Source: Shimia thalassica (GTDB lineage: Bacteria > Pseudomonadota > Alphaproteobacteria > Rhodobacterales > Rhodobacteraceae). From it: a DNA stretch of 64,000 nt. The notes below the pieces were generated by a model. It had not been told where the DNA came from. It saw only the letters and a list, made by a program, of their open reading frames with translations, and did no database searches. Each line of letters begins with the position of its first letter. Position 1 is the first letter of the stretch. The DNA is taken from assembly GCF_001458215.1 (NCBI RefSeq), contig NZ_CYTW01000001.1, positions 372,001 through 436,000 of the forward strand, in the 5' to 3' direction. A program made the position numbers and the translations under genes. Below are positions 4,726 through 21,307 of this stretch, in pieces.

Positions 4726-4801
4726 AGGGGTATAGCTCAGTTGGTAGAGCGACGGTCTCCAAAACCGTAGGCCCACAGTTCGAGTCTGTGTGCCCCTGCC
4801 A
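4726..4801 (+). tRNA. tRNA-Trp (anticodon CCA)
   Basis: A 76-nt gene with encoded CCA. The acceptor stem AGGGGTA pairs with TGCCCCT. The anticodon loop is CTCCAAA, giving CCA for UGG codons, and the T arm carries GTTCGAGTC. It serves as the integration target of the element to its right: its 3' half from the anticodon stem onward is repeated at 19155-19205, so the gene stayed intact after integration. Confidence 0.97.
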
Positions 4802-4804
4802 TTT
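4754..4804 (+). repeat. attL, 51-bp direct repeat inside tRNA-Trp
   Basis: Identical, base for base, to 19155-19205. It begins in the anticodon stem and runs three bases past the CCA end. Confidence 0.95.
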
Positions 4805-4874
4805 ACAACTATTTGAGAATAAACAGCTTTTAGGCAATAGGCCTTGGCGATAGGTAAGGCCTAAACGGCTTTAT

Positions 4875-4958: not shown

Positions 4959-6320
4959 TTACTCAGCCGCTTGAGCCGCCCCTGCGCCCCGCAGGACAGC
5001 CAAAACCACCTCTAACGGTTGCCCCGACGCTTGGGCGTATTCCATGGCTTTCAGCATAACCTCTGGGGGCAGATCATCCCCCGTCGCGTCGGTTTTGGGT
5101 TTCGGCGTTGACGACAGACCACCCGCGATTGCGACCAATTGCTTTTGGGCAAGCGCCTCAGTGACCCAGCCGTACGTTGAGGCAGTCATGGTAGGATCGG
5201 CATGCCCCGCAAATTGCGAAACGGTTTCCAACGGAACGCCTTGTTCGATCAGGTGCGTAATTCCGCCGTGCCGACGCGAATGCAGCCCAGCCGTTACGCC
5301 CAGATTGTTTGCAGCCGTTTGCACCATTGAGGACACCGCCGACGGACGCCAGACGCGCCCTGTGCGAGGATCAGGGAACACCAGCCGATCGACATTCCAG
5401 ACGACGCCCTTGTCGGCTTCCTTGCGCCGCCGTAGCAGGGCCAAAGCATCGGGCACGAGATAGACCTTGCGGCCAAGTTCGCCTGTTTTGGCGCTTGTTT
5501 TGGTGCCCCGCCGAATTCGGAAGATACCGCCCGCCTCTTCTGTCACATCTTCGATAATGACAAACGGCGTTTCCGCGTTCAAATGCACATGGGCCCAAGG
5601 CAGGCCAAGGGTTTCTTGCTTGCGGCAAGCCGTTAGAAAACCGAACTCGACCACATCGGCCAAATCGGCGTCGTTTCGGTTCAGCTTTTCATGGCCGTTA
5701 CGCAGGGCATCAACCAAGATTTGCGTTTCATCCGCCGTTGCCATTTTGACGTTCGGGCCCCGCTTGGGCACAGGGGGAGCCTTCACACCTTCGACGCGGA
5801 CGTTCCAAGTAATCAGACCTTCATCATAGGCATGAGCCATAGCCTTTTTGAGAAAGCCCCAGATGTGGTGCACGTTCCGCGCCCCGTTTCGGCTTTGCCC
5901 CGCTTTGGGATGATCGACTGGCCAGACTTCTTTCCGCGCCGCATCGACAAGCGCCACAAACGCGGGTTTCCGCACGTCTGTTAGCTTCATCGCCCCGTTC
6001 ATGAGCCGTAACACCCCGTTAGCCAATTGGGCATCCCTGTGGGCCGTTTTCAGCGCCTTGTTGGCTCTTTGGTATGGGAGAAAAATTTGCAGCAGGAACC
6101 ATTCAAGCGACCCATCGGTGACGGGCGCGGCGGGGTTGTCCCGTAGTTGCTTTTCGAGCGCGTTGGCATCCCGTAGCGCCGCCGCTTTGGATTTCGCCTT
6201 GATGGTTTTGTTTTTGCGGATCAGGACGGGCGACCCGTCGGCCCGGACGGACCCAGCAGGGCAGGGAATACGAAGGGCCGCAAGCCACTTGCCCCCATCA
6301 CGTTGATAGACTGACGCCAT
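4959..6320 (-). CDS. int: Tyrosine recombinase / integrase of the element
   Basis: A 453-residue phage-type integrase. The start at 6320 (MASVYQRDGGKW) was chosen because it gives the normal short N-terminal arm-binding segment and overlaps the previous stop as TAATG; the open frame extends further upstream. Catalytic residues are visible: R233 in TACRKQE, H347 and R350 in HSRRH, GHA near 375 and the nucleophile Y383 in TASTYGW. The C-terminal 55 residues beyond the tyrosine are an extra tail. It catalyses integration at the tRNA-Trp 3' end. Orientation towards attL next to the tRNA is typical for tRNA-targeted islands. Confidence 0.95.
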   Translation of the reverse strand: MASVYQRDGGKWLAALRIPCPAGSVRADGSPVLIRKNKTIKAKSKAAALRDANALEKQLRDNPAAPVTDGSLEWFLLQIFLPYQRANKALKTAHRDAQLANGVLRLMNGAMKLTDVRKPAFVALVDAARKEVWPVDHPKAGQSRNGARNVHHIWGFLKKAMAHAYDEGLITWNVRVEGVKAPPVPKRGPNVKMATADETQILVDALRNGHEKLNRNDADLADVVEFGFLTACRKQETLGLPWAHVHLNAETPFVIIEDVTEEAGGIFRIRRGTKTSAKTGELGRKVYLVPDALALLRRRKEADKGVVWNVDRLVFPDPRTGRVWRPSAVSSMVQTAANNLGVTAGLHSRRHGGITHLIEQGVPLETVSQFAGHADPTMTASTYGWVTEALAQKQLVAIAGGLSSTPKPKTDATGDDLPPEVMLKAMEYAQASGQPLEVVLAVLRGAGAAQAAE

Positions 6321-6832
6321 TATTTCGCCCCCCTGTTCGCGCGCCAAAAGGCGGTTTGACAGCGACCCGAACAGAACTTCGCATCGGATCGGCGGACAGG
6401 GAACAGGCCCCCGCAATGATGGCAGGCACGAAAGTCGGGCCGCTCTTTCCAATCTTTTGCCGCATCGAAGCCCATCTTGGCACGTAAAGTCCCGTAATTG
6501 ACGAAGGGTACCATGTCCTCGCTTAAATCGACGTTGACTTCGCCAGAGTGGATCAGTTGCGAGCAAATCAGGTTCAGCTTGGACGCTGTCACCCGTTCGC
6601 GGGCAGGGTCGTCGAGAAAGGTAGAATCGCCGCCGTCGTCGAGCGGGGCCCAGAACCCGTAGATTTCGCGCAGGAAGGCAAAGATATCTTCTTTGTGGGT
6701 ATATTGGAAAAGCGGGGCTTCATAGCGCCAATCCGCTTCGCGGTTCGCGTCGATTTCTTCGATCGACAATTGCGACATTCGTGCCGCCCAGCCGTCGATT
6801 TTCTGGTTATTCCAGAGTTCAGCTTTTCGCAT
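6320..6832 (-). CDS. CGNR-like zinc-finger protein upstream of integrase
   Basis: A 170-residue protein translated from ATG 6832 behind AGGAG; a TTG ten codons earlier is less likely. The last 40 residues carry a C-x2-C ... C-x3-C arrangement (CHHCGGLF, then FCSGRC) followed by basic residues, which resembles the CGNR zinc finger of putative DNA-binding proteins. The rest is acidic and unassigned. Its stop overlaps the integrase start by one base, so the two are translationally coupled and probably work together, for example as integration accessory or regulator. Function is inferred from position only. Confidence 0.65.
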   Translation of the reverse strand: MRKAELWNNQKIDGWAARMSQLSIEEIDANREADWRYEAPLFQYTHKEDIFAFLREIYGFWAPLDDGGDSTFLDDPARERVTASKLNLICSQLIHSGEVNVDLSEDMVPFVNYGTLRAKMGFDAAKDWKERPDFRACHHCGGLFPVRRSDAKFCSGRCQTAFWRANRGAK

Positions 6833-7464: not shown

Positions 7465-7788
7465 TTGGAGCGGGAATTCGAGGCCGCAACCTACGCCAAG
7501 GCCGTCGAACTCGCACATTACGCCCACGACGAGCGTTTCGAAACCTTGATCGCCAACGTTGAAAAAATGAACGAGCGTTTGACGCAGCTTTTGAAGTCAA
7601 AGCACGTTCTGGACCTCAAGGATTACAAGGCGCTGAAAAAGGTTATGGCTCCACAGGGCAACCCGTCGCCCGAGGCGCTACGCCACGCTTGGGAAGTCTT
7701 CGAAAGCTTGGGCATTGAACCAATGAGCGACAAAGAAATTGCCTTGGTCGAAACGTTTAAGGCCAGCGCTGCAGCGATGAAGAAATAG
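7465..7788 (+). CDS. Small hypothetical protein, possibly 5'-frameshifted
   Basis: At least 107 residues from TTG 7465, helical and charged (KAVELAHYAHDERFETLIANVEKM region), no recognised domain. The same frame stays open upstream to 7318 without an ATG, and residues just before the TTG (AKDRLTAAIAAHRKR) look like real protein. An ATG at about 7348-7351 in another frame reads MMDGLTDTPATEPDAMEANLSG up to 7415, so a one-base shift near 7415 would join the two. Either the gene uses a rare start or it carries a frameshift. It is followed by a terminator. Confidence 0.5.
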   Translation: MEREFEAATYAKAVELAHYAHDERFETLIANVEKMNERLTQLLKSKHVLDLKDYKALKKVMAPQGNPSPEALRHAWEVFESLGIEPMSDKEIALVETFKASAAAMKK

Positions 7789-7810
7789 CAGCGGTTGCCG
7801 CAACCGATAA

Positions 7811-7840
7811 AAAGCCCCCGCCAGAGGTGGCAGGGGCTTT
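7811..7840. terminator. Bidirectional terminator between converging genes
   Basis: AAAGCCCC-CGCCA / TGGCA-GGGGCTTT with a GAGG loop, placed between the 7465-7788 gene and the oppositely oriented antitoxin gene. Confidence 0.8.
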
Positions 7841-7878
7841 GCATGTTCAACAAGCTTGTTTCCTAGACGAAACGACAG

Positions 7879-8328
7879 TCAGGCGACCGCCCAATGTTCG
7901 CCTTCCAGCTTGAATTTGTGATGTTCTAATTCAACGATCTGTCGATCAAGCGCAGCAAGGCCTTTAACGAGTTCGTGGATTTTTTCGTCAGATCGCGATG
8001 CGGCATAGAGCAAGCCGACCGCCACACTTGCAGGGCCAGTCACTTTCGCGTCCCGTTCTTTTTCCCAGCGTTGGATATTCTTCACCGACGTTTTGATAAG
8101 GTCAGCCAGCGCCCTTTGCGACATATCCAATTCAATTCTGATAAAGCGAAACTCAGCCCCCGTCATGACATGCGGGCTCGCTATGATATCCATCGCAATT
8201 TCATGATGCAGCCCGTCCAGATTGGCAATCGAAGTCGCAGAGCCATATGGCGTCTCGGTAACTTCAACGCCGCCCTCCAACCAGATAGATGGCAGGCCAC
8301 AGTCCACGTAATGGAACAGTTCAGACAT
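7879..8328 (-). CDS. MqsA-type HTH antitoxin / regulator
   Basis: A 149-residue protein. The N-terminal segment (LFHYVDCGLPSIWLEGGVEV) matches a common proteobacterial antitoxin family whose members start with an FHYxxxGLxxVWL-like motif. A Xre/MqsA-like HTH follows (TGAEFRFIRIELDMSQRALA, then SVKNIQRWEK, residues about 55-90). The C-terminal 50 residues are likely a coiled coil. Encoded 18 bases after the DUF4258 toxin gene in the same operon, so it probably neutralises the toxin and represses the promoter. The toxin-first order is as in mqsRA. Confidence 0.75.
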   Translation of the reverse strand: MSELFHYVDCGLPSIWLEGGVEVTETPYGSATSIANLDGLHHEIAMDIIASPHVMTGAEFRFIRIELDMSQRALADLIKTSVKNIQRWEKERDAKVTGPASVAVGLLYAASRSDEKIHELVKGLAALDRQIVELEHHKFKLEGEHWAVA

Positions 8329-8346
8329 AGTTCTCTCCTTTCGCTT

Positions 8347-8670
8347 TCAGCGACCGCCCCTATGCGCGGTTATGACGGTGACAATCATCGCGCCATTGTG
8401 AATGGCGCAGACAACGGACACCCGCATACCAGCGGCGACCCCTGAAACCTTCCCTTCCCAACTTCCCTTGTCAGGGTTCCATGACGGACCCGAGGCCAAT
8501 GTCCCACGTTCGAGCACACGCAAGATCATGCGGCGGGTTAAATCCCGCTCTAGCATTCTTGATTTTGCATGGTCCGTAATGACCACCATGTGGTGTACAT
8601 TGGCGTAGTTACGGACGTTCTTTATGAATAGGTCAGGCCCCATAAAGGGGATTGGTTCGGCTTCGTTCAT
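8347..8670 (-). CDS. DUF4258 toxin-like protein
   Basis: A 107-residue protein with the DUF4258 pattern: ITDHAKSRMLERDLTRRMI in the middle and a C-terminal beta strand set (VSVVCAIHNGAMIVTVITAH). DUF4258 proteins are paired with HTH antitoxins and are thought to be RelE/MqsR-like RNases; activity here is inferred. First gene of a two-gene operon. An inverted repeat sits directly before its ATG. Probably an addiction module stabilising the element. Confidence 0.7.
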   Translation of the reverse strand: MNEAEPIPFMGPDLFIKNVRNYANVHHMVVITDHAKSRMLERDLTRRMILRVLERGTLASGPSWNPDKGSWEGKVSGVAAGMRVSVVCAIHNGAMIVTVITAHRGGR

Positions 8671-8976
8671 GCCCTCAATATGAGGGTGTTATTCACGAAT
8701 ATCAACACCAAAGTTGTTAAGGTCGGGTGAATGCGGCGTTATTGGCCAAGGGCGTTTTCAACAAGCATTAGCGGTCACCATAACCGCTAAACAGCCTCAA
8801 GCCCAAGCCCTGACAACCTGTAAGGTCCTGCAAATAAACAGAATTTTTGGTCGCCAAATCGGGTTCAGGGGATTAAGATTGAGAGGCCCCGCGAGCGCCG
8901 CAAACGCTCAAACGAGGCCTGTTGTTCGTCGCGGACAGCAGCAAACAAAAACGACCTTGTAACAGAAGGACGCCTC
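8671..8976. promoter_or_regulatory. Gene-free region with candidate toxin-antitoxin operators
   Basis: A 306-bp gene-free divergent region between the toxin gene and the primase-polymerase gene. CCCTCA-ATA-TGAGGG at 8672-8686 abuts the toxin start, and TATTC-AC-GAATA lies at 8690-8701; both are perfect inverted repeats and good operator candidates. The rest shows no gene; it should also contain the rightward promoter for the replication genes. AGAAGGA precedes the next ATG. Confidence 0.5.
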
Positions 8977-10101
8977 ATGGCTAAAAATACATCACCCCCC
9001 ATTGCAACGCAACCGAAACGCCGTTGGCGCGTCTCGAATGATGAATGGAACGATATTCTGAACGTTCGGCATGGCCTATGGCGTTGCGGATACATCGTCA
9101 TTCCAAGCGACGAAACGGGCAAAAAGCCTTTGTTCAGCAAATGGCCGCAATTCCAATACGACCCGCAGGACCCAGAACCCGCAATCCCGCGACAAATGAC
9201 CAACGCGGGGACCTTATCGAAGCTTCCTCACTTAGGAACAGGCGCGTCGACTACGGGGCTTGTTACCTTTGATCTGGACCTAGACGACGCCGACGCCGTT
9301 GCCGACGCGCGCGCTTCGATCGAAGATATTGCAGGCCCCGCACCGCTCGTGCGTTTTCGCGATAATAGCCCCCGTCTCATGCTGATTTACGGCGCAGGCA
9401 AAACCACCCCGAAACTCGCCAATGACGGCTTTGTTAAAACCCCGTTCGGGGCGATTGGCTGCGACGCAGCCCACGCGGGGCAGTTTGTGCATCTACACGG
9501 CCTGCACCCATCAGGCGCGCGCCTGCAATACGAAGACGCGACCCCATGGCAGACCCCCACGCACAGCCTAACGAAAGTTGAAGGCGAGGCCCTACCCCAG
9601 ATCGCCAAGGCCCTTGCGCACAGCTTGGGCGGCGACGTTGGCGGCATGGCCGTAGCTGGCAAAGGGTTTGCGGGGGATATGCGGACCAAACGCGGCGAGG
9701 TAGGCCTTCGCGACGCCGTTGCCGACCTTGTGACAGGGGCCAGCATCACAAACAGCATGGAAACGATCGCCGAAATCCTAATCAACGATCTGGACGTTGC
9801 CGACCACGCAGCCGAAGAACTTATCGAAGGGCTGATAATGGCAGGCGAACGTATGACACCAACAGAGGCCAAACGATACGACAACGCCCGATCGCAGCTT
9901 GGCACCGACGGACGGCAAGGTATCGGGATTTGTCGCGCGATTGGAATGTATAAAGATAAACGCATCGAAGATGATTTGCGCCCCGTTAAAATCGAAGAAC
10001 AGGGCCAAATGGAAATCTTGGCAACAGCCTTTAAACGCGCAGACCCAGAGGTTCGAAAGGTGTTTTACGAAAAGCTGAAACAGATCGCCCCGAAGGCTTG
10101 A
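8977..10101 (+). CDS. Primase-polymerase (AEP, prim-pol domain) protein
   Basis: A 374-residue protein of the archaeo-eukaryotic primase superfamily. The N-terminal half carries the bifunctional DNA primase/polymerase pattern: the acidic metal-binding motif FDLDLDD around D99-D103 and the conserved histidine motif HLHGLHPSG around H172. The C-terminal half (from about 215) is a helical region typical of these plasmid and satellite replication proteins. It would synthesise primers for replication of the excised element and pairs with the helicase-like ATPase downstream. No helicase domain is fused. Confidence 0.85.
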   Translation: MAKNTSPPIATQPKRRWRVSNDEWNDILNVRHGLWRCGYIVIPSDETGKKPLFSKWPQFQYDPQDPEPAIPRQMTNAGTLSKLPHLGTGASTTGLVTFDLDLDDADAVADARASIEDIAGPAPLVRFRDNSPRLMLIYGAGKTTPKLANDGFVKTPFGAIGCDAAHAGQFVHLHGLHPSGARLQYEDATPWQTPTHSLTKVEGEALPQIAKALAHSLGGDVGGMAVAGKGFAGDMRTKRGEVGLRDAVADLVTGASITNSMETIAEILINDLDVADHAAEELIEGLIMAGERMTPTEAKRYDNARSQLGTDGRQGIGICRAIGMYKDKRIEDDLRPVKIEEQGQMEILATAFKRADPEVRKVFYEKLKQIAPKA

Positions 10102-10174
10102 ATTTGCCCCGCCCCCGCTGGACCTGATAGGTCAGTATGGGCAGAATAGAACGACAAATAGAAAGGTCCCGCCA

Positions 10175-10276
10175 ATGAACCATAAAACGAAAAAGACGCC
10201 CCAAAGGAGCGCCTTGTCCGAATGCGAAGTAATACCACGAACTTCCCAAAAACCAACAGGTTTCAGTTTAGCGTGA
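10175..10276 (+). CDS. Possible very small protein (33 aa)
   Basis: ATG at 10175 follows GAAAGG at good spacing and reads a basic 33-residue peptide (MNHKTKKTPQRSALSECE at the start). It fills the gap between the primase and ATPase genes in the same orientation. No family recognised; it may simply be leader sequence. Confidence 0.25.
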   Translation: MNHKTKKTPQRSALSECEVIPRTSQKPTGFSLA

Positions 10277-10322
10277 TGCATTCTGCAAGGCAAGAGGGGC
10301 CCAATACCAACAGGCCAAATCT

Positions 10323-11591
10323 ATGCCACAAGACAACAACGCCGCGCCCCTGAGCGGGCTTGATGAAAGCCAGCTAGACGCCGCCCAACTTTCGTTCGAC
10401 GCGCCGCCAGAAATCCCAAGAGCCGACGGCAAGATATGGGATGAAAAAGGTGGGAACTGGATAGCCCCAGCAGGAAAGAAAACCGACGCAGAACGGCTTG
10501 AACAGTTCGCGGTTCGCTTTGGGTCCGACACGGCCATTCCCAACCTAGAGGATAACTGGCTTATCCGCGATATCATGCCTATGAACGGCGCGGTGGCGAT
10601 GTATGGGGCTCCCGGCTCGGGGAAGTCCTTCCAATCCTTAAGCATGGCCCTATTTATCGCAGCAGGGCGCGCATGGTGCGGGAAGGAGGTCGAGCAAGGC
10701 CTTGTCGTCTATGTGGCCCTTGAGGGGGGCGGCGTGTTTTCCAATCGGGTTTTCGCCGCCACAAAGCACCACCACTTAACCGACGACGAACTTGCCAACT
10801 TCGCCACGATCAACGCAACCGTGAATTTGCGGGAAAAAGACAGCGGCGCGGAATTGCGGCATTGCCTGACAGCAATCGAAAACCACACAGACAAGAAAAT
10901 CGTATTGTTGATTGTGGACACCCTGAACCGCGCGTTTGGGGGCGGCAACGAAAACAGCCCCGAAGATATGGGCCAGCTAATCGGCGAACTCGACACGATC
11001 CGCGAACAGTTCGACACAACCGTTCAGCTTGTCCACCACAGCGGCAAAGATGTGGCCCAAGGGATGCGCGGCCATTCCAGTTTGATTGGCGCAGTCGACA
11101 CCGAAATCAAGATCGAACGAAACGACGAAGGGCGGCTTATGACCATCTCGAAACAACGGGACGGCGAAGATGGCGAACAGTTCGGGTTCAGGATCGAAGG
11201 TTTTGACGTTGGAACATCGCCCAAGGGACACCCCGTAAAATCCGCCGTTGCCGTGCCAGCCGACAAAGACGCAATCAAAGCGGCTAACAAGAAAACCGCG
11301 CAAGGGACAAATCAGACGATCGTTGTAAACGCCCTGAAACAACTTACCGCCGAACCAGAGGCGAAGAAAAAACCGAGCGGGACAGGCTGGCCCGAAGCGG
11401 GGCTGTATCACATCGTCTCTGTTGATGATCTTTTGAACCACGCAAAAGGGAAAATAACGCCGCCCGAAGAAGGGAAGAAAGACAGGCGGCGGGAACACCT
11501 ACTTCGAAGCTTGAACGATATGATCGAAAAAGACGGGCTTTGCATGAATGACGGTTTTGTTTGGGACCCGAAGATGAAGATCACGAAATGA
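10323..11591 (+). CDS. RepA-like AAA ATPase / replicative helicase
   Basis: A 422-residue protein with a RecA-fold ATPase core: Walker A GAPGSGKS at residues 95-102, Walker B LLIVDTLNR with D199, and the downstream VHHSGKD motif typical of RepA/AAA_25 hexameric helicases of plasmids and satellites. The N-terminal 70 residues and the C-terminal segment after about 330 are accessory; the latter may be a DNA-binding winged helix. With the preceding primase-polymerase it makes a minimal replication module. Confidence 0.82.
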   Translation: MPQDNNAAPLSGLDESQLDAAQLSFDAPPEIPRADGKIWDEKGGNWIAPAGKKTDAERLEQFAVRFGSDTAIPNLEDNWLIRDIMPMNGAVAMYGAPGSGKSFQSLSMALFIAAGRAWCGKEVEQGLVVYVALEGGGVFSNRVFAATKHHHLTDDELANFATINATVNLREKDSGAELRHCLTAIENHTDKKIVLLIVDTLNRAFGGGNENSPEDMGQLIGELDTIREQFDTTVQLVHHSGKDVAQGMRGHSSLIGAVDTEIKIERNDEGRLMTISKQRDGEDGEQFGFRIEGFDVGTSPKGHPVKSAVAVPADKDAIKAANKKTAQGTNQTIVVNALKQLTAEPEAKKKPSGTGWPEAGLYHIVSVDDLLNHAKGKITPPEEGKKDRRREHLLRSLNDMIEKDGLCMNDGFVWDPKMKITK

Positions 11592-11745
11592 TACCCAAAG
11601 ACAAAAACCCCCTTCCCTCAAGAGGTACCCAAACCCCAACCCTAAAGGGTTTTGGGGGTTTTGAGTACCTTTCACTTAAGGTTTAGGCACTCAAAAGACC
11701 TCAAATGGGGGTTTTGGGTACTTTGAGTACCAAAGACAAAAAAAC
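11592..11745. repeat. Repeat-dense intergenic region, candidate origin or attenuator
   Basis: GGGGGTTTTGAGTAC (11654-11668) and GGGGGTTTTGGGTAC (11707-11721) are near-identical direct repeats. AGGTAC at 11623 and GTACCT ending at 11670 close a long imperfect hairpin. Another TTTGAGTACC is at 11722-11731, and a TACC(C)AAAGACAAAAA tract occurs at both ends of the region. It lies directly after the helicase gene, where satellite and plasmid origins with iterons are often found; origin function is inferred. Confidence 0.5.
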
Positions 11746-11764
11746 ACCGAAAGGACCCCACCCC

Positions 11765-11926
11765 ATGAATTGCCGCCATTGCCACGCCTTCACACGCGCC
11801 GACACGATCTGTCCGTCTTGCGCCGACGTCGACAGCGCCTTGTCCACCGCCGTCCAGACTGCCAACCTCGTCTTGCAGGCCCACCACAATCAGGCCCTGA
11901 GACGGGCCGCACAGGCCGAGAGATGA
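11765..11926 (+). CDS. Small zinc-ribbon protein (53 aa)
   Basis: A 53-residue protein with two CxxC knuckles, CRHC at residues 3-6 and CPSC near 17-20, followed by an alanine-rich helix. The spacing fits a zinc ribbon. AAAGGA lies ahead of the ATG at 11765. Its stop overlaps the next ATG (ATGA). Probably a small nucleic-acid-binding or regulatory protein of the element; no closer family recognised. Confidence 0.55.
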   Translation: MNCRHCHAFTRADTICPSCADVDSALSTAVQTANLVLQAHHNQALRRAAQAER

Positions 11927-12132
11927 ACCGACGACCGACCATAGGGGGAAGAATGCGCCAGAACCCCCCCCCGAAATTAGCCGATCTCATGGCCTCTGGC
12001 GGCGACCCAGCACCCAGCACAGCCGAAAAGGTGTTATATTGGCTTAAATCGGCGATTTTTGCGCCCCGTACGGTTTCCCGAGATCGCGCGCGACGGGTTT
12101 CCATAATCAGGAGAAAACAGCATGGGACATAG
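11923..12132 (+). CDS. Small basic hypothetical protein (69 aa)
   Basis: Starts in an ATGA overlap with the zinc-ribbon gene and ends 11 bases into the following HTH gene, so it sits tightly in an operon. The product is arginine-rich at both ends, with one hydrophobic stretch (VLYWLKSAIFAP). No recognised domain. The overlaps on both sides are the main support. Confidence 0.4.
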   Translation: MNRRPTIGGRMRQNPPPKLADLMASGGDPAPSTAEKVLYWLKSAIFAPRTVSRDRARRVSIIRRKQHGT

Positions 12133-12814
12133 GGGAAAAGACAACCGTTTCATCCCGACAAAAGACGATCGCGAGATGGTAATCACACTCCGCGCAAACG
12201 GGGATAACCAAACCACGATCGCACGAAAAATCGGGATCGACGTTAAGACGTTGACCAAGTATTTCCGAGGCGAATTAGACGCAGGCAATGGCGAGATCGA
12301 AGCGACGCTCTCTCGCGTTCTCATGCGGAATGCCAGTCAGCAGGCCAGCATCCAAGGAAGCAACCAAGCCGCGAAGCTTATTTTCGACTATACCTTGGGC
12401 ATGTCACCCGAACAAAAGCACCGCCTTGTTCACCAGAACGGCGGCACCGCGATGGATGACGACGACAAGCAACACGCTGTCTCCATCCTCGACGCCAAGA
12501 TTGCCCCGTACCTCAAGGATTTTGAGGAAGGCCAAGAAATACTGGCGCGGATGGAAAAATATGGCGTGGTCGGCGACGATATAGAGGATGCGGAAGTCTA
12601 CGACGACGAACCGATCGACGGTGAACCGTTGCGGATTGAGGCCCAGCCCGAGCCCAAGAAAAAGAAGAAAAAGAAACGGAAGGCGAAGAAAAAGCCGAAG
12701 GCCGAACCATCCATCGAACTCGCACCGACCCCAGAGCCCGAGCCCGAGCCAGAACCCGAAAAGTCAAAATTGCCGCGTCGATCAGGACGACGCCCCCCGA
12801 TATGGAAGCCCTGA
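12122..12814 (+). CDS. HTH protein with lysine-rich and EP-repeat tail
   Basis: A 230-residue protein. Residues 15-50 form a resolvase/terminase-small-type HTH (MVITLRANGDNQTTIARKIG then VKTLTKYFRGEL). A helical segment follows to about 145. The C-terminal third is low complexity: an acidic part, a lysine run (KKKKKKKRKAKKK) and EPEPEPEPE repeats. The N-terminal HTH is like those in small terminase subunits or phage regulators; which one applies cannot be decided. AGGAG precedes the ATG. Confidence 0.6.
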   Translation: MGHRGKDNRFIPTKDDREMVITLRANGDNQTTIARKIGIDVKTLTKYFRGELDAGNGEIEATLSRVLMRNASQQASIQGSNQAAKLIFDYTLGMSPEQKHRLVHQNGGTAMDDDDKQHAVSILDAKIAPYLKDFEEGQEILARMEKYGVVGDDIEDAEVYDDEPIDGEPLRIEAQPEPKKKKKKKRKAKKKPKAEPSIELAPTPEPEPEPEPEKSKLPRRSGRRPPIWKP

Positions 12815-12816
12815 CC

Positions 12817-13038
12817 ATGACCAGATATACCGCCGTCGTTCACAAGGACACCGACACCGATTACGGCATCCACATTGCAGGCCTGCCCTTATTCAGCAGC
12901 GCCGCGTCGATTGATGATGTCCCCATGCGGGCGCAAGCTGCGTTGCGTTTATTTGCTGAAACGGAACCTCTGCCCGACCTCGCGTCTCTTGACATCGAAT
13001 TGGACAGCGCGGCATTTGTCGTCGAAGTCGATATCTAG
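12817..13038 (+). CDS. HicB-like protein without visible HicA
   Basis: A 73-residue protein with the HicB fold pattern: YTAVVHKDTDTDYGIHIAG followed by LPLF and a helix (MRAQAALRLFAE). HicB proteins are usually antitoxins with a partly degenerate RNase H fold. No HicA double-stranded-RNA-binding toxin is encoded beside it, so it is an orphan antitoxin or a regulator. The start at 12817 overlaps the previous stop region; 12802 is possible. Confidence 0.6.
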   Translation: MTRYTAVVHKDTDTDYGIHIAGLPLFSSAASIDDVPMRAQAALRLFAETEPLPDLASLDIELDSAAFVVEVDI

Positions 13039-13179
13039 TCGAATAGGTCTATACAACCGCTGTCGAGCTGTCGAATAATCAATCCTTAACAATACCTTAA
13101 CACCACTTTGCGTTTCAGGTAAGCTTGTCTCACACCGCAATGCGTAGCCCAGAGGGCATGGCAAGAGGGAAAAGAGACT

Positions 13180-13614
13180 ATGACACCACGACTAAGCGAC
13201 GTTCCAGATGCCGTATTCGAGACGATCGACGACACACCAATCGCCCCATTCATTGAACAGTTGAAGCGTTGCCGCGCGTTACACCACGATTACAAATTCT
13301 TGGGCCCTTGCGGAAAAATATTCGAGCCGTTCCCCCATGAACTGAAGGCGTACACCGCCGATTTCTTCGCCGCGCGTCGTTTTATTGAGGCTATGCCGTC
13401 AGAAGCGTTCAGGAAGACCGCCCACGGCGGCGCATTCCTTGCCGAATTCGCGCATTTGATCTCGCCAGACATTGAACACGTTTCAGCAGCCGCCGCGTTG
13501 TTGGAGTTGGGACACAAGTTGACCGAACGGACGGCGTTTGTCGAAGTCAGCATTTCGAAGAAATGGATGTTCGAACTAAAAACCGCGCGCCTTCGCGCAA
13601 AACTGGAAGGATAG
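13180..13614 (+). CDS. Hypothetical protein (144 aa)
   Basis: Clear open frame with GGAAAAGAG ahead of ATG 13180. The product is mostly helical, with no membrane segment or motif I recognise. It is the last gene of the element backbone before the base composition drops at the restriction cassette. Confidence 0.6.
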   Translation: MTPRLSDVPDAVFETIDDTPIAPFIEQLKRCRALHHDYKFLGPCGKIFEPFPHELKAYTADFFAARRFIEAMPSEAFRKTAHGGAFLAEFAHLISPDIEHVSAAAALLELGHKLTERTAFVEVSISKKWMFELKTARLRAKLEG

Positions 13615-13619
13615 GGCCC

Positions 13620-13661
13620 ATGACCGACACCAGCGCCGAACTCTTTCAGGTATTGCAGTAA
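13620..13661 (+). pseudogene. Possible 5' stub of an interrupted gene (13 codons)
   Basis: ATG 13620 follows an excellent SD context (AAGGATAGGG) and reads 13 codons before TAA. A strong start with almost no gene suggests that the rest was lost when the downstream cassette arrived. It could also be a chance ATG. Confidence 0.3.
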
Positions 13662-13871
13662 AGCCGCCGTTTGAACCGACGCCTGAGATAACTGCTGACC
13701 TATCGGTTCCGTTGAGGGTCTAATAAGGGCGCTAGAAAATTTGTTGTTGGAGCTTCCGGATTTCGGCGTGGGACACCAGTGCTCTGGGAAAGGCTTCCAG
13801 GACTAGGATGCAGTTTACAGGGCCCTCGTTTAGAGTTAGTTCTGTCAGTCCAATCACGACAGGAGAACGGC

Positions 13872-14897
13872 ATGACGACCGCCAGACTGAGCTCGGCACG
13901 CCAAGCCAAACAGGACGAGTTCTACACATCACTCCACGATATCGAACTCGAGCTCGAACATTATAAAAAGCATTTCAAAAACAAGATCGTATATTGCAAT
14001 TGTGACGATCCTAGAGCGAGCAACTTTTATAACTATTTTGCCGAAAATTTCGAACGACTTGGCCTAAAAAAGCTCCTTACAACCTGTTATCGTAGTCAAG
14101 ATTGCAGACAATTTAGCCGCGGTGCCTCGGATCAAGCCGTCTTTTTGGAGCTTTCGGGCGAAAGGGCGGAAGATAATGGAAGCAATCGAGACGCAGCAAT
14201 TGCCCGTCCCTTGCAGGGGGATGGAGATTTTCGGAGTGCCGAATGCATCCGATTTCTTAAGCAAGCTGACATCGTGGTGACCAATCCGCCGTTCTCCTTG
14301 TTTCGTGAGTACGTGGGCCAGTTAATTGAACACAAAAAGAAATTTCTGATTATCGGAAACATGAATGCCTTGACCTATAAGGAGGTTTTCCCTCTCTTCC
14401 AGCATAATCAAATGTGGTATGGTCCAAGCATACGTAGCGGGGACCGAGAGTTCCAAGTTCCAGCCGACTATCCGCTTAATGCTGCGAGCACGAGGGTTGA
14501 CCGAGAGGGCAATAGATTTGTCAGGGTGAAGGGGGTTCGGTGGTTTACAAACCTTGACTACCATTTAAGGCACAAGGATCTGGAACTCCAAATGACTTAC
14601 AAGCCAGAAAACTACCCCAAATATGCAAACTATGATGCAATAGATGTTAGTAAAACTATGAACATACCAAAGGACTATTCCGGCCTAATGGGCGTGCCGA
14701 TCTCCTTTTTAGACAAGCACAATCCAGATCAATTTGAAATATGTGGCTCCAGTAAAACCCTCAGTCTCCCGATGTCGCAGATTGCAGAAAAAGGAACATA
14801 CCAGCAAGGAGGACCACGCTTCTACTTGCCAAACGGCGACGGCACTTTTCGGCGCATGTATGACCGGATCGTTATCCGAAACAGGCGGCTAAAATGA
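13872..14897 (+). CDS. EcoRI-family adenine-specific DNA methyltransferase
   Basis: A 341-residue protein, close in length to M.EcoRI. DDPRASNFYNYF at D45 onward and the motif IV NPPF at N138-F141 are visible; the whole order matches the EcoRI-methylase family, which makes N6-methyladenine. The start at 13872 follows AGGAG; the frame is open upstream. First gene of a five-gene operon ending in mcrC, so it presumably protects host sites from the nuclease. AT-richer than the element backbone. Recognition sequence cannot be predicted. Confidence 0.85.
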   Translation: MTTARLSSARQAKQDEFYTSLHDIELELEHYKKHFKNKIVYCNCDDPRASNFYNYFAENFERLGLKKLLTTCYRSQDCRQFSRGASDQAVFLELSGERAEDNGSNRDAAIARPLQGDGDFRSAECIRFLKQADIVVTNPPFSLFREYVGQLIEHKKKFLIIGNMNALTYKEVFPLFQHNQMWYGPSIRSGDREFQVPADYPLNAASTRVDREGNRFVRVKGVRWFTNLDYHLRHKDLELQMTYKPENYPKYANYDAIDVSKTMNIPKDYSGLMGVPISFLDKHNPDQFEICGSSKTLSLPMSQIAEKGTYQQGGPRFYLPNGDGTFRRMYDRIVIRNRRLK

Positions 14898-14919
14898 AAA
14901 ACTTCAAAAAGGGTAAGCC

Positions 14920-15942
14920 ATGTCGTACCGCTATTTGGGAAACAAGACCCGCCTAGTTGATTGGATCGTAGGCGTTATTTCACGCGAAATTCCAATAGGA
15001 TCGTCCATCGCCGACCCGATGTGCGGCACAGCGTCAGTAGCATTTGCGCTAGCACAGGCAGGATACTCGGTCATGGCGGCGGACGCGTTGAGCTTTCCAG
15101 TGGTTCACGCACATGCGCGGCTGATTGCAAAGAAGGCGCCAGATTATGAAGCGCTGGGCGGCTATGAGGGAGCTTTAGATTGGATGCGCTCAGTTCAACC
15201 AATTGAAGGTTACTTTTTTCGAGAGTTCGGTGATGAAGGCCAACCGGCAAACGGTCGGTCTTCAAGGCGCTATTTCTCAGCGAAAAATGCAGCACACATC
15301 GACGGAGTTCGTGCAGGGATTGAAAAAATGAGAAAGGCTGGAGAAATAAGCGAGACGGAACAGTATGTAATGCTCCAACATCTTATCCTTGCGACCAATA
15401 AGGTGGCCAACATTAGTGGTACCTATGGGTACTTTAGGCGAACTCTATCAACGTCTGCTCTTAGGCCTCTCAGTTTCGAGGCGCTCAAATTTGACCGCAC
15501 GATTGGAAATCATGCGGTCGTGCAGGGTAATGTTGAGGACCTCGCACCCAAACTGAACACGGACGCCGTGTACCTCGATCCACCTTACACCAAAAGGCAA
15601 TACGCTGGGAACTACCATGTATTGGAAACTCTCGCCCGAGGGGATGAGCCAATTGCTGTTGGTGACGGAGGGCTTCGTCCTTGGCAAGAGCAAGCCTCTA
15701 AGTTTTGCTACAAACGAACGGCGGCCGACGCTTTTAGAGAAACACTCGAGCGTCTCCGGGTTCCACATATCTTTATATCGTATAGTGAGGACGGTCAGGT
15801 TGGCGAAAAGGAACTGTTGTCAATCTTGAGAGAATTCGGCAAAGTCGCGATGCATGAACATCCTTATTCCCGGTACCGCAGCAATGCTAAAGGGAAAGAT
15901 GGTACCGTTCTCGAAAGACTTTATCACGTGAAGGCAATTTGA
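14920..15942 (+). CDS. D12-class N6-adenine DNA methyltransferase
   Basis: A 340-residue Dam-like enzyme. YLGNKTRL at the N terminus is motif X, DPMCGTASVAF at D32 is motif I (SAM binding) and DPPY at D220-Y223 is the catalytic motif IV. The order is that of D12/alpha-class enzymes (Dam, FokI-type). AAAGGG precedes the ATG, 22 bases after the first methyltransferase gene. Two adenine methyltransferases in one operon suggest an asymmetric target with one enzyme per strand; that is inference. Confidence 0.88.
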   Translation: MSYRYLGNKTRLVDWIVGVISREIPIGSSIADPMCGTASVAFALAQAGYSVMAADALSFPVVHAHARLIAKKAPDYEALGGYEGALDWMRSVQPIEGYFFREFGDEGQPANGRSSRRYFSAKNAAHIDGVRAGIEKMRKAGEISETEQYVMLQHLILATNKVANISGTYGYFRRTLSTSALRPLSFEALKFDRTIGNHAVVQGNVEDLAPKLNTDAVYLDPPYTKRQYAGNYHVLETLARGDEPIAVGDGGLRPWQEQASKFCYKRTAADAFRETLERLRVPHIFISYSEDGQVGEKELLSILREFGKVAMHEHPYSRYRSNAKGKDGTVLERLYHVKAI

Positions 15943-15944
15943 TT

Positions 15945-16502
15945 ATGCAAGGCAAGCTGGAAATTCAAAGCATCTGGTGGCGCAATGTTCAACCCGGCGA
16001 GTTTTACAACATCGAGCGGCATCACCAAATCGACGGCGGGGGTGGATCGCTTTATATTGAAATTCCTGCTTCTCTTGTCGCTGAAACGCTCGACTTTTTG
16101 GGCGTGACTGCGGCTGACGCTGAAGCTGGTCCGATTGTTGTTGATGCGAGTGCTGTCGATGATGCCAACGTTTCCGGCCCTATCGAATTCAAGTCTAAGG
16201 CTGGAGGCCGACTTCGCATTGCAAATCAAAACCGCCAGGCTCCCAATTCGCTGCGGCATCCGGCATGGACAGCTGCGAGAAACTTCCCATCGGCCCCCGA
16301 CACTGTCGGCAGCAAAGAGGACGCGCTGCCCTTTTTTCCAAAAGGCGGGCTCAGGATCTATATTGCGAAATCAAATGCGGGAGAGTACTTCGCGGGTTTC
16401 ACAAGCGGTTACCGCCCTGCGAATATGTCGAGAAACAGTCCAATGTGGGATCTGTACCCCGATGGAAATCGGCCAGTCGGTGGCGTCATAAAGGCAGGTT
16501 GA
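15945..16502 (+). CDS. Unrecognised 185-aa protein, candidate DNA-recognition subunit
   Basis: Starts two bases after the second methyltransferase stop and ends seven bases before mcrB, so it is part of the same operon. The product is beta-rich (LEIQSIWWRNVQPGEFYNI; GGGGSLYIEIP; GLRIYIAKSNAGEYFAGF) with no nuclease or methyltransferase motif. The following McrB has no N-terminal specificity domain, so this protein may supply target recognition as a separate chain. I do not recognise its family. An alternative TTG start lies two codons upstream. Confidence 0.65.
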   Translation: MQGKLEIQSIWWRNVQPGEFYNIERHHQIDGGGGSLYIEIPASLVAETLDFLGVTAADAEAGPIVVDASAVDDANVSGPIEFKSKAGGRLRIANQNRQAPNSLRHPAWTAARNFPSAPDTVGSKEDALPFFPKGGLRIYIAKSNAGEYFAGFTSGYRPANMSRNSPMWDLYPDGNRPVGGVIKAG

Positions 16503-16509
16503 ACAAGAT

Positions 16510-17682
16510 ATGCCTGACGCAATCAAAAATATCCTACTTTCATGGGGTCGAGGGCGGAATGCTTTGTTGTATGGCCCGCCGGCAACAGGCAAAACTCGCT
16601 TAATCAGCGAGCTTTTTGAAATCCTCAACAGTCCACCCGAAGCCGAACAGGGGATTTGGCTAGACCCCGCCGAAACCGAAACACCGTTTGTTCGACCGGA
16701 GTTGGAAATCCCGATCCCCCGACCGGTCAAAGTTGTTTGGACAACTTTTCACCAATCGTATGGATATGAGGATTTCGTTCTCGGTCTCAGACCTGAAATG
16801 ACTTCTGAGGGGACGCAGCTCCGGCCTTGGTCTGGAGTTTTCCTCGATGCGGCCCTCGAAATTTCCGACCCCGAAACCGACGTAAACTCAGTTGTAATTT
16901 TCATTGACGAAATCAATCGGGGTAATGCAGCGAGAATTTTCGGCGAGTTTATGACCTTTTTGGATTTCGACTATAGAGAAGAGGGAAGTGTCCCTCTCCC
17001 GTTGCCGTTAAGACAGCTGTCATTTGAAAGTGGTGTAAGTGAGGAAATCCGACGACCCGGCGGCAAGACGGCCACAATTCCTGAAGGGTTCACCTTTCCC
17101 AAACACGTGTATGTTGTTTCCACAATGAACAGCGTTGATAGAGCTGCAGTACCGATCGACAGTGCTCTGGCACGCCGATTTGACCGTATTGAGATGCGGC
17201 CAAACCTAGACGTTCTTGGAAAACTTTGGGGGCTGACAAGAGAAACAATCAATGCACCAACGGACGAAAATTGGGAGACATTGTCCCCGTTTGAAACCAC
17301 CTACTTGCTACTCGATCGTCTGAACGCCTTAATTGCGGGCGACCTTGGGCCGGAGTTCGAGCTTGGGCACGGGCTTTTGGTTTCCATCCAAGCCGCCGCA
17401 AGCGATACAGGGGTTCCAATTTCTGAGGATCAAGTTTGGCGCGACATAGCGCGTGTCTGGGACGACGTGTTGTTCCCTCAGCTTGAAGACAGGTATTCTG
17501 GCCGCCCCGAACAGCTTATAGAATTGCTACGGGTCGATAGCCCTCCTGCCACCGGTGAAATCGCATGGGCGCTGCGCACTACTATAGGCAACAGCTCGCC
17601 AACTCGTACGCTTGCGCCCGTTCGAGTTAGCGACCTTGATCTAGAAATTGTCAAAAGGTCCTTCAGGTGGCTTACGAGGTAA
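16510..17682 (+). CDS. mcrB: McrB-type AAA+ GTPase, core domain only
   Basis: A 390-residue AAA+ motor. Walker A GPPATGKT is at residues 22-29, Walker B FIDEINRG at D133-E134, and the McrB-specific GTP-binding signature MNSVDR at M206-R211, with the ARRF sensor-2 region after it. McrB normally carries an N-terminal DNA-binding domain of 150 residues or more; here the AAA+ fold starts within 20 residues of the N terminus. It should hydrolyse GTP, translocate DNA and drive McrC cleavage. It overlaps mcrC by 16 bases. Confidence 0.9.
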   Translation: MPDAIKNILLSWGRGRNALLYGPPATGKTRLISELFEILNSPPEAEQGIWLDPAETETPFVRPELEIPIPRPVKVVWTTFHQSYGYEDFVLGLRPEMTSEGTQLRPWSGVFLDAALEISDPETDVNSVVIFIDEINRGNAARIFGEFMTFLDFDYREEGSVPLPLPLRQLSFESGVSEEIRRPGGKTATIPEGFTFPKHVYVVSTMNSVDRAAVPIDSALARRFDRIEMRPNLDVLGKLWGLTRETINAPTDENWETLSPFETTYLLLDRLNALIAGDLGPEFELGHGLLVSIQAAASDTGVPISEDQVWRDIARVWDDVLFPQLEDRYSGRPEQLIELLRVDSPPATGEIAWALRTTIGNSSPTRTLAPVRVSDLDLEIVKRSFRWLTR

Positions 17683-18950
17683 TCGCGCAACCTCGAATTG
17701 AGCTCCAAGAGTACGGCGAGCCGGTTTTATACAGGGCGGACAAAATGGATCTCGATCTTTTAGCTAGCGCAAATAAGCGTTGGCGAAGAGAATTGGGAAT
17801 TCCGTTTGATCCAATTCGCGTAGAAATCCACGATGAAAATATGGTGAAACTACGTGCCGAAGCGGTAACTGGAGTACTTCGCATAGGCAAAGTCGACATA
17901 GAAATTGCTCCAAAATTTCTCAGCGCCGAGACCAAAAATTGGCAAACAGTACTTTGGCGAATTCTTTCGGTCGTAGAGGGAGGGCACGTTGATGAAAATT
18001 TGACGACGGCCCAATCAATCGCTTCGCAGTCTTTACCTGATCTGCTTGCGGAGATGTTTCTTAAGTCCTACGCAAGAGGCGCAGCCCGCGGACTTCCTCG
18101 CGGCTATCGGAACGAGCAGAGAAGCGGATCTATGCTGCGCGGAAGCATCGATACGTCGCGCCTCGGAGATTGGGTCGCACGTCCGTGGGAGCTTCACTAT
18201 GTAACGGATTTCTTGACCGACGACACGGCCCTTGCTCGGCTTCTTCGTTGGTCGGCCAACTGCCTTGCTGCAACAGTAAAAACGCCTGCGCGATCTAGGG
18301 CCCTCCTTGAGATCGCAGCCGGCTTAGCTCATGTCGGAAGACATCCCCCCCACATTGCTGATGCAAGGCAAATAGGTCTCGGTATCCAATATAGAGAACT
18401 TGAGCCTGCTCGAATTGTTGGGTTGCTATTACTTGAAGGGTTTGGAGTTCACCATGCAAAAGGCAACTTTTCACTTTCTGGATTTCTCTGGAACTCGGAC
18501 CTGATCTACGAAAACTATGTCTTTTGGCTTTGCCAAAGAGCGGCTGCGCATCAGGGAAGCCGTGTAGACAAGCGCAGGATTGTATTTGGTGAAGTTGTCT
18601 CCGGAGGCGGCACAAAATTGGTAACAGAGCCAGATGTTGTGTTTCGCGACACCAAGGGCACGCCGATTGCCGTATCGGACGCTAAGTACAAACGCTTGGG
18701 GACCCGCCCTAAATCATCGGACACCTATCAGCTAGTTACTGCGGCGCATGTCCTTGGGTGTCAACGTGTTTCTCTCACGTACCCAGTGGCTCAAGATAGA
18801 TCACCAACATACTGGCGGATTTCGTCTAGTTTAGGCGGGCTTGACATCGTGTTAACGGCTCTTCCTCTTAACCTAATGCTACTCTTGCAACCAAAGGGGC
18901 CGCAACAATTAGTTGACGCTATCCATGGCTGGCTCAGTAACAAGTTTTAA
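17667..18950 (+). CDS. mcrC: McrC-type endonuclease subunit
   Basis: A 427-residue McrC. The N-terminal half binds and stimulates McrB; the C-terminal PD-(D/E)xK nuclease core shows TEPDVVF with D323 and DAKYK with D338 and K340. GTG 17667 lies inside the mcrB end, so translation is coupled. McrC cuts both strands when translocating McrBC complexes stall or collide. The last gene of the cassette and the last complete gene of the element. Confidence 0.9.
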   Translation: MAYEVIAQPRIELQEYGEPVLYRADKMDLDLLASANKRWRRELGIPFDPIRVEIHDENMVKLRAEAVTGVLRIGKVDIEIAPKFLSAETKNWQTVLWRILSVVEGGHVDENLTTAQSIASQSLPDLLAEMFLKSYARGAARGLPRGYRNEQRSGSMLRGSIDTSRLGDWVARPWELHYVTDFLTDDTALARLLRWSANCLAATVKTPARSRALLEIAAGLAHVGRHPPHIADARQIGLGIQYRELEPARIVGLLLLEGFGVHHAKGNFSLSGFLWNSDLIYENYVFWLCQRAAAHQGSRVDKRRIVFGEVVSGGGTKLVTEPDVVFRDTKGTPIAVSDAKYKRLGTRPKSSDTYQLVTAAHVLGCQRVSLTYPVAQDRSPTYWRISSSLGGLDIVLTALPLNLMLLLQPKGPQQLVDAIHGWLSNKF

Positions 18951-19042
18951 CTTTGAAGCGCTGCTCACTTCAGCGAGAAGGAGCTCAGGCTGGCCTTCGA
19001 TCGCTATCGCATCCTTTGTGCAGAGCGTGCACTGCTCAAAAT

Positions 19043-19104
19043 GTAACATCCAAATGTAACACGACAGGCGTTGTCAGGGGTTGCAGGGGCATACTTGAGT
19101 AACA
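19043..19104 (+). promoter_or_regulatory. GTAACA repeats near the right end, possible integrase arm sites
   Basis: GTAACA at 19043, 19056 and 19099, matching the left-end cluster (4875-4940). Located 50-110 bp inside attR. Confidence 0.45.
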
Positions 19105-19154
19105 TCTGGGCTTCCGAAACCCCAATAAATAAGGGGTTTCAGATTTCTTGGGTA

Positions 19155-19205
19155 GGTCTCCAAAACCGTAGGCCCACAGTTCGAGTCTGTGTGCCCCTGC
19201 CATTT
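19155..19205 (+). repeat. attR, 51-bp direct repeat of tRNA-Trp 3' half
   Basis: Perfect copy of 4754-4804 without the 5' half of the tRNA, so it is not a functional tRNA gene. Marks the right end of the integrated element. Confidence 0.95.
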
Positions 19206-19325
19206 TCCACAAAACTGAAAAGAAATTGATATGTTACCACCGAGGATATCTTGCGCAAATTCGGCAAAGCCCGAAGTCTCTTCTTCCATGACTTTTTCCT
19301 ATTTTTTTTGCTGCTTTGCCGCTGA

Positions 19326-20485: not shown

Positions 20486-21307
20486 TTAAGGTCTCGGGAA
20501 GATAGTTCCTTCAGAGTCGCTGCATGCTGTCTGAGTGCTGTCATTGGGAAACAGCTTGGCAGCTACTTTTTGCGCGTGTGGCAAAAGCTCTTTTTTAGGG
20601 AAGTACTCGTCATCCTTGATCGCCTGACGCGTCAGTTTGAAGTTTTCCCAACCTTCGACAGGCGCATCAACAACAACGGGTTCTTTTTTGGCGTAGTGAA
20701 TCTTTTTGATCCGCGCAAAGGTGCCTTGTGTTTCAAAGTCGGTCACAGACATGTCGAGTTCTTTTTCAACGAGATTGAGCACATCGTTTACTTCGCAATC
20801 GTCGACGTTGATCGTGATGACCCGACCAAAGGGCAATGTCCAAACCGGTTGGAATTGCGCACAGACATGCGGGTCGGATGTTGAGGGGCGCTCGCGTGGG
20901 ATCTTTTTCAAGACTTTCACGAAGTCATTAAATGACAAGCCGTCTTTTGACATGCTGATGCCGGCACGATTTTGAATCTGGGTATCGATCACGTTGTACC
21001 GCACGCAATGGCGGAACTGCGAGATAAGCCGTTTGGCGGGATCACGGGTGACCTTGAGAAGGGTCCAGTTGTCTGGGTCGGCTTTCGCGAATGCCTGTTT
21101 GCGCTGCTTGTAGACCTGAGAGTTGTAATAGACCTTGTTGCGGAAATCGTGCGGCCAATGCGAGAAATAGTTGGCGGCGGGCAAAAGGTTTTCTTTCAGA
21201 AGGAACCAGATGATCGCATGAGAACAGGCAGATTTGGGCGAGAAGGACAGCACCACCCGTTTCTGGCTGAAAATCAGCGGCATCGGTGTCACGTTGAGCT
21301 GTTGCAT
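20486..21307 (-). CDS. Sulfotransferase family protein
   Basis: A 273-residue protein with the PAPS-binding pattern of sulfotransferases: the 5'-phosphosulfate loop SPKSACSH at residues 23-30, preceded by a hydrophobic strand, and the 3'-phosphate motif VTRDPAKRLISQF at residues 86-98. Family members transfer sulfate from PAPS to carbohydrates or other acceptors, and in roseobacters they often modify surface polysaccharide. The acceptor here is unknown. It stands alone between two unrelated genes. Confidence 0.75.
   Translation of the reverse strand: MQQLNVTPMPLIFSQKRVVLSFSPKSACSHAIIWFLLKENLLPAANYFSHWPHDFRNKVYYNSQVYKQRKQAFAKADPDNWTLLKVTRDPAKRLISQFRHCVRYNVIDTQIQNRAGISMSKDGLSFNDFVKVLKKIPRERPSTSDPHVCAQFQPVWTLPFGRVITINVDDCEVNDVLNLVEKELDMSVTDFETQGTFARIKKIHYAKKEPVVVDAPVEGWENFKLTRQAIKDDEYFPKKELLPHAQKVAAKLFPNDSTQTACSDSEGTIFPRP

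What the first reader, a model, noticed from the sequence alone, without database searches (positions are those of the whole stretch)
13872..18950. McrBC-type nuclease operon carrying two adenine methyltransferases
Seen: one operon codes for an EcoRI-family adenine methyltransferase, a D12-class adenine methyltransferase, a small unknown protein, McrB and McrC, with gaps from 22 bases down to a 16-base overlap. Known: classical McrBC cuts methylated DNA and has no partner methyltransferase; LlaJI and BsuMI are exceptions in which McrBC-like restriction is paired with two cytosine methyltransferases. Inferred: this is an analogous system that uses N6-adenine methylation as the self mark, with one enzyme per strand of an asymmetric site, and that GTP-driven cutting is directed at unmodified DNA. 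I know of no named system with exactly this composition.
Basis: partly seen in the sequence, partly recalled or inferred. Interest (0 to 1): 0.85.

Follow-up and report, generated by a model that had tools for sequence, protein, structure and literature searches.

The report
Adenine-marking McrBC restriction-modification operon
A mobile element carries a five-gene bacterial immune system that appears to mark its own DNA with two adenine methyltransferases and to use a small sequence-reading protein to aim a motor-driven McrBC nuclease at unmarked DNA; it is a new variant of a known but little-studied kind.

Summary
Window 13872-18950 holds one operon: EcoRI-family adenine methyltransferase (M1), D12 adenine methyltransferase (M2), a 185-aa protein (S), McrB GTPase, McrC nuclease. 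The same five genes in the same order occur in 14 of the 29 loci found by scanning one genome per species with M2, in four phyla. The proteins co-diverge and no flanking gene is shared by more than three of the 15 loci. S, without a known family, is predicted to be a B3 DNA-recognition domain; its best solved matches include LlaJI.R1. S relatives are fused to the N-terminus of McrB in two loci and to an HNH nuclease in others. Most likely this is a restriction-modification system in which S aims McrBC at an unmethylated site. New are the composition (EcoRI-type plus D12 enzyme, free-standing B3 protein) and signs that one recognition-methylation core swaps its nuclease and second methyltransferase. 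Methylation, target site and cutting are untested.

The parts
13872..14897 (+). M1, EcoRI-family adenine DNA methyltransferase, 341 aa
   Evidence: PF13651 440.7 bits; 46.5% identical to the methyltransferase next to annotated EcoRI on an E. coli plasmid; NPPF motif 14 of 14
14920..15942 (+). M2, D12-class adenine DNA methyltransferase, 340 aa, related to FokI- and LlaI-type enzymes
   Evidence: PF02086 95 bits; DPPY 14 of 14; 32% to the N-terminal half of a FokI-type methyltransferase and 31.6% to 'LlaI methylase'
15945..16502 (+). S, 185 aa, predicted free-standing B3-like DNA-recognition subunit
16510..17682 (+). McrB-like AAA+ GTPase without a fused N-terminal domain, 390 aa (Walker A at residue 22)
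   Evidence: PDB McrB matches E 2.3e-20; NxxD signature NSVD, motifs 14 of 14
17667..18950 (+). McrC-like PD-(D/E)xK nuclease subunit, 427 aa, GTG start
   Evidence: PF10117 109.9 bits; PD...D-x-K present in the 14 aligned loci
4754..4809 (+). attachment repeat: 3' part of tRNA-Trp (left end of the carrying element)
   Evidence: 56-nt direct repeat, 96% identical to 19155-19210
19155..19210 (+). attachment repeat (right end of the carrying element, about 200 bases after mcrC)
4959..6566 (-). integrase of the carrying element
   Evidence: phrog_1 integrase E 4e-41

Best explanation
A self-contained GTP-driven restriction-modification cassette of the LlaI/LlaJI/BsuMI kind, carried as cargo by a 14.4-kb element integrated at tRNA-Trp. 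M1 and M2 methylate adenines of one recognition sequence, most likely one enzyme per strand of an asymmetric site, and so protect the host (families shown, activity and site inferred). S, a free B3-like protein, binds the same sequence when it is not methylated and takes the place of the N-terminal recognition domain of McrB (fold predicted; position shown by two natural S-McrB fusions). McrB rings with GTP assemble with McrC, move on the DNA and McrC cuts it (inferred from McrBC and intact motifs). Unmarked phage or plasmid DNA is destroyed.
For: Five-gene unit in 14 of 29 M2-related genome loci, from four phyla; no flanking gene shared by more than three of 15 loci. Pairwise distances of the five proteins correlate, r 0.78-0.97, 0 of 2000 permutations as high, 14 loci, L020 left out. 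M2 of the 15 five-gene loci forms one group, support 100/97. S model: the 23 entries shown are B3-type domains, including LlaJI.R1, UbaLAI, BfiI and EcoRII recognition domains. S is fused to McrB's N-terminus in L032, L033. Searched by S alone, the three plasmid hits all lie beside an M2 homologue, there as the N-terminal part of an HNH nuclease in the two examined (L002, L003). Seven genome loci have the same B3-HNH arrangement (L027-L031, L034, L036). Catalytic motifs conserved. Precedent: PMC2614495, PMC3874153, PMC1459862, PMC12707154.
Confidence: 0.85

Rival explanations
1. Type IV (modification-dependent) McrBC whose S protein reads methylated DNA, with two methyltransferases beside it that serve another purpose.
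For: McrB and McrC are recognisable McrBC proteins; the best-characterised McrBC, that of E. coli, cuts modified DNA (PMC12707154, passages).
Against: S has the predicted B3 fold of LlaJI.R1, and LlaJI targets unmethylated DNA (PMC1459862). A nuclease that attacks the marks of its own operon's enzymes would harm the host, yet the five genes stay together in 15 loci. The S homologue in HNH systems also sits with two methyltransferases.
Confidence: 0.06
2. Same restriction-modification machine, but M1 and M2 modify two different bases or two overlapping palindromic sites rather than opposite strands of one asymmetric site (as the two BsuMI enzymes act on one palindrome, recalled).
For: M1 is 46.5% identical to the EcoRI methyltransferase, which acts on both strands of a palindrome (EcoRI site recalled). 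Five of six examined M1 kin pair with a single nuclease gene and no M2.
Against: M2 is related to FokI-, AlwI- and LlaI-type enzymes of asymmetric sites (AlwI and FokI sites recalled). In the 27 of 29 loci that can be judged M2 has a second methyltransferase gene next to its system, of one of three unrelated families. Outside the 14 five-gene loci its family was tested in 4 of 13 (L025, L026, L030, L033), the rest judged by position, length and motif; two of the tested four are PF01555, a family that holds both N6-adenine and N4-cytosine enzymes.
Confidence: 0.3
3. Chance neighbours in a defence island: an RM pair beside an unrelated mcrBC.
For: The genes sit on a mobile element, where defence genes gather (the tendency is recalled).
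Against: Fixed order, recurring overlap and co-divergence in 14-15 loci with unrelated surroundings; S-McrB fusion.
Confidence: 0.01

Closest known systems
LlaI (Lactococcus pTR2030)
   Same: McrBC-related type II RM; three-gene restriction cassette with a short McrB (337 aa) (PMC1459862); a protein annotated LlaI methylase is homologous to M2 (31.6%).
   Different: LlaI has one FokI-like double-domain methyltransferase (recalled), here two separate enzymes of unrelated families, EcoRI-type and D12. I did not obtain the LlaI restriction genes, so homology of S to LlaIA is untested.
LlaJI (Lactococcus pNP40; H. pylori LlaJI)
   Same: Two methyltransferases, McrB-like GTPase, McrC-like PD-D/ExK nuclease, B3 recognition domain, asymmetric site GACGC (PMC1459862, PMC12707154; passages and sections).
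   Different: Cytosine-5 enzymes (recalled); recognition domain fused to R1; here S is separate and the marks are predicted m6A.
BsuMI (Bacillus subtilis)
   Same: Three-gene restriction cassette with short 343-aa McrB-like protein (PMC1459862).
   Different: Cytosine methyltransferases and a palindromic site (recalled).
E. coli McrBC (type IV)
   Same: GTPase plus PD-D/ExK nuclease.
   Different: No partner methyltransferase; N-terminal modified-cytosine reader fused to McrB; cuts modified DNA (PMC12707154).
B3-HNH RM systems (L002, L003, L030 and others; no name found)
   Same: M2 homologue 44% identical and S homologue as recognition domain.
   Different: HNH nuclease in place of McrBC; Eco57I/TaqI-like second methyltransferase (tested in L030).

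Membership tests
McrBC-like type II RM (LlaI/LlaJI/BsuMI kind) | McrB-like AAA+ GTPase with Walker motifs and NxxD signature | tested here: met
   (sequence only; GTP use not tested)
McrBC-like type II RM (LlaI/LlaJI/BsuMI kind) | McrC-like subunit with PD...(D/E)xK | tested here: met
McrBC-like type II RM (LlaI/LlaJI/BsuMI kind) | Cognate DNA methyltransferase(s) in the same conserved operon | tested here: met
   (genes and linkage only)
McrBC-like type II RM (LlaI/LlaJI/BsuMI kind) | Site-specific B3-type recognition module (known for LlaJI) | tested here: met
McrBC-like type II RM (LlaI/LlaJI/BsuMI kind) | Restricts unmethylated DNA, blocked by own methylation | not testable with these tools
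   needs plaque or cleavage assay
LlaJI in the strict sense | Two cytosine-5 methyltransferases (recalled) | tested here: not met
   Both enzymes are in adenine families PF13651 and PF02086
Type IV McrBC | No cognate methyltransferase | tested here: not met
Type IV McrBC | Modified-base reader fused to the N-terminus of McrB | tested here: not met
   Walker A at residue 22 of 390 leaves no room; no N-terminal family found
Type IV McrBC | Cuts methylated DNA | not testable with these tools
   no biochemistry
B3-like DNA-binding domains (S) | B3 fold | tested here: met
FokI/LlaI-related D12 methyltransferases (M2) | Homology to these enzymes over the whole domain | tested here: met
   28-32% over 330-348 aligned positions; in the tree they lie on long branches outside the M2 group

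The most novel reading that the evidence does not exclude
A single recognition-and-marking core (D12 methyltransferase plus B3 reader) acts as a socket into which evolution plugs interchangeable nucleases (GTP-driven McrBC or simple HNH) and interchangeable second methyltransferases (EcoRI-like, PF01555 type III Mod-like or TaqI/Eco57I-like). In the window's version an EcoRI-type and a FokI-related enzyme share one asymmetric site; from recalled family preferences (GAAT.. and GGAT..) a candidate is 5'-GGATTC-3'/5'-GAATCC-3', marked on both strands at the central AT.
Probability: 0.45. Interest if true: 0.65.

Novelty: new variant of a known kind. Interest (0 to 1): 0.52.

Why it matters
McrBC-like machines that obey a methylation code are few: LlaI, LlaJI and BsuMI are the ones I found described, and in the LlaJI paper of which I read parts the purified subunits showed no cleavage in vitro (PMC1459862). 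A conserved, mobile cassette with a free-standing recognition subunit would let one test directly how an McrB motor is handed a sequence-specific target, since reader, motor and nuclease can be purified and mixed separately. The natural swap between McrBC and HNH on the same reader is a ready-made experiment on how type II and type IV restriction are related. A 2024 census noted the McrB-methyltransferase association as prevalent and left it to a later paper (PMC11090510, section 6 read).

Tried and rejected
Chance neighbourhood: rejected by the 14 matching loci. S as an EVE/PUA, DUF3578 or YTH reader: no family above cut-off and none of these folds among the rows shown; this absence alone excludes nothing. 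S in solved structures by sequence: one match at E 0.9, chance. Small proteins of L006, L007, L009 as S relatives: hhalign probability 0.4, not supported. An extra conserved gene of the cassette: all-against-all comparison of flanking frames found three loci (L010, L011, L038) sharing a frame that looks resolvase-like to me (no family search) and one other pair (L012, L016). Empty integration site: the same-genus genome G210 has tRNA-Trp followed by other genes, so no clean empty site was shown. Viral contigs: one S relative only, on a contig of the same length (42690) as the Roseovarius contig of L025. S in sampled genomes: 1 of 248 (family) and 1 of 398 (phylum), both times the window's own genome, so the system looks rare. 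Neighbourhoods of plasmid hits were viewed for part only: 13 of 82 records with an M2 match and 6 of 71 with an M1 match. The target site could not be inferred. O'Sullivan 1995 (LlaI) and Hosford 2018 (LlaJI.R1) are not held, so LlaI details rest on other papers or recall. Papers: PMC2614495, PMC3874153, PMC12707154, PMC7680126, PMC10059834, PMC4081073, PMC3990576 passages; PMC1459862 sections 5 and 11 plus passages; PMC11090510 section 6 plus passages; others in listings only. Searches for related work in print; in what I saw of them none named this composition.
Full report
What is there. The window lies in an alphaproteobacterial genome, probably Rhodobacterales (Rhodo-rpoB and alphaproteobacterial L2 leaders). 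M1 is an EcoRI-family adenine methyltransferase (PF13651, 440.7 bits), M2 a D12-class adenine methyltransferase (PF02086, 95 bits), S a 185-aa protein without a Pfam, PADLOC or NCBIfam family above cut-off, the fourth gene an McrB-like AAA+ GTPase and the fifth an McrC-like nuclease (PF10117, 109.9 bits). McrB matches solved McrB structures at E 2e-20; McrC matches a solved McrC at E 0.001.

Where it sits. A 56-base direct repeat, 96% identical, links the 3' part of tRNA-Trp (4754-4809) with 19155-19210. Between the repeats lie an integrase, a helix-turn-helix regulator-like gene, a primase-like gene (weak, E 2e-5), a helicase gene of phage families and, at the far end, the operon. So the operon is cargo of a 14.4-kb integrated element, probably phage- or satellite-derived (inference). 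I did not find a clean empty site.

Is it a unit? A scan of one genome per species with an alignment of three M2 proteins gave 29 loci. Fourteen (L010-L022, L038) hold all five genes in the window's order and strand; in L020 mcrB is in two frames. Four more (L023-L026) hold M2-S-McrB-McrC followed by a convergent second methyltransferase (PF01555 in the two tested, L025 and L026). Two (L032, L033) have a methyltransferase before M2 (Eco57I/TaqI_C-like in L033, the one tested), then M2, then an McrB with S fused to its N-terminus, then McrC. Seven (L027-L031, L034, L036) have M2 convergent with an HNH nuclease whose N-terminal part is S: BLAST with S found it in three of the seven (L028, L030, L036), the others were found through the L030 nuclease (41-81% identical); HNH families were tested in L030 and L027 only, the L027 match being below Pfam's cut-off; L034's mechanical frame is shorter than the match and may be interrupted. 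Two loci are uninformative: L035 has only a 131-residue remnant of M2, and L037 ends inside M2. Because the scan started from M2, the presence of M2 is given; independently, the three plasmid hits found with S alone also lie beside an M2 homologue. Across 14 five-gene loci (window included, L020 left out) all ten pairwise distance correlations are 0.78-0.97 and none of 2000 permutations reached them. Among frames flanking the 15 cassettes none is shared by more than three loci. In the M2 tree the 15 five-gene loci form one group (100/97), L023-L026 join it (97/94), and the S-McrB fusion loci group with the HNH loci (100/98), with several long branches flagged by the program. The hosts of the 15 loci span four phyla, so the cassette probably moves between distant bacteria.

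How it most likely works. Shown: gene linkage, intact motifs, predicted fold of S, its fusions. Inferred: M1 and M2 mark adenines in one site; S binds this site when unmarked; S works with the McrB ring, which with GTP and McrC translocates and cuts, as in McrBC. Asymmetry of the site is suggested by M2's relation to FokI-, AlwI- and LlaI-type enzymes and by the second methyltransferase gene, from one of three unrelated families, in the 27 judgeable loci. It is weakened by M1's relatives that sit with a single DUF262 or EcoRI nuclease gene and no M2 (five of six examined). In the M1 tree two DUF262-linked sequences (Gordonia L004, Sulfitobacter L005) group with the McrBC-linked ones (99/99), L004 inside an unresolved set, so M1 has probably moved between nuclease types.

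What is known. PMC2614495 (passage) describes LlaI, BsuMI and LlaJI as unusual type II systems related to McrBC that cut unmethylated DNA and come with a pair of methyltransferases. PMC1459862 (sections 5 and 11) states that LlaI and BsuMI have three-gene restriction cassettes with short McrB proteins (337 and 343 aa), the layout seen here. PMC12707154 (passages) says LlaJI recognises an unmodified asymmetric site by a B3 domain. PMC11090510 (section 6) reports McrB-methyltransferase association as prevalent and defers it. So the kind is known. The particular composition (EcoRI-type plus D12 methyltransferase, free B3 protein) did not turn up in the eight literature searches, which cover open-licence papers only. 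I therefore call it a new variant of a known kind.

Against my reading. There is no biochemistry. More distant M2 relatives on plasmids sit with FokI- or AlwI-type nucleases or with no recognised nuclease, so M2 as a family is not tied to McrBC. The one-site idea and the GGATTC candidate rest on recalled specificities of distant relatives and are low-confidence.

Noticed in passing
window 4754-19210: 14.4-kb element at tRNA-Trp with integrase, helix-turn-helix gene, weak primase match and a helicase-like protein 37% identical to a 'DNA primase/helicase' of Roseobacter phage CRP-823; possibly a phage satellite or decayed prophage.
   Followed up: partly
L002, L003, L027-L031, L034, L036: B3-HNH restriction-modification systems (second methyltransferase, D12 methyltransferase, convergent nuclease) on Rhodobacterales plasmids, in alphaproteobacterial genomes and on a Woesearchaeota contig; I found no name for them.
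   Followed up: partly
L006, L007, L009: McrBC-methyltransferase plasmid operons whose roughly 190-aa subunit is unrelated in sequence to S; perhaps another family of recognition subunits.
   Followed up: partly
L004, L005, L053, L054, L056: EcoRI-family methyltransferases directly followed by a DUF262 nuclease gene (GmrSD_N plus HNH in L004, the one tested), apparently two-gene RM systems built from a type IV-like nuclease.
   Followed up: partly
L039 and L025: An IMG/VR viral contig and a Roseovarius genome contig of equal length (42690) both carry the S relative of the M2-S-McrB-McrC type.
   Followed up: no
window 20486-21304 (-): Sulfotransferase-family protein just outside the element (PF03567).
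   Followed up: no
L035:6624-7040: Remnant of M2 (131 residues) alone in Salinibacterium, without the other four genes: looks like a decayed copy.
   Followed up: no
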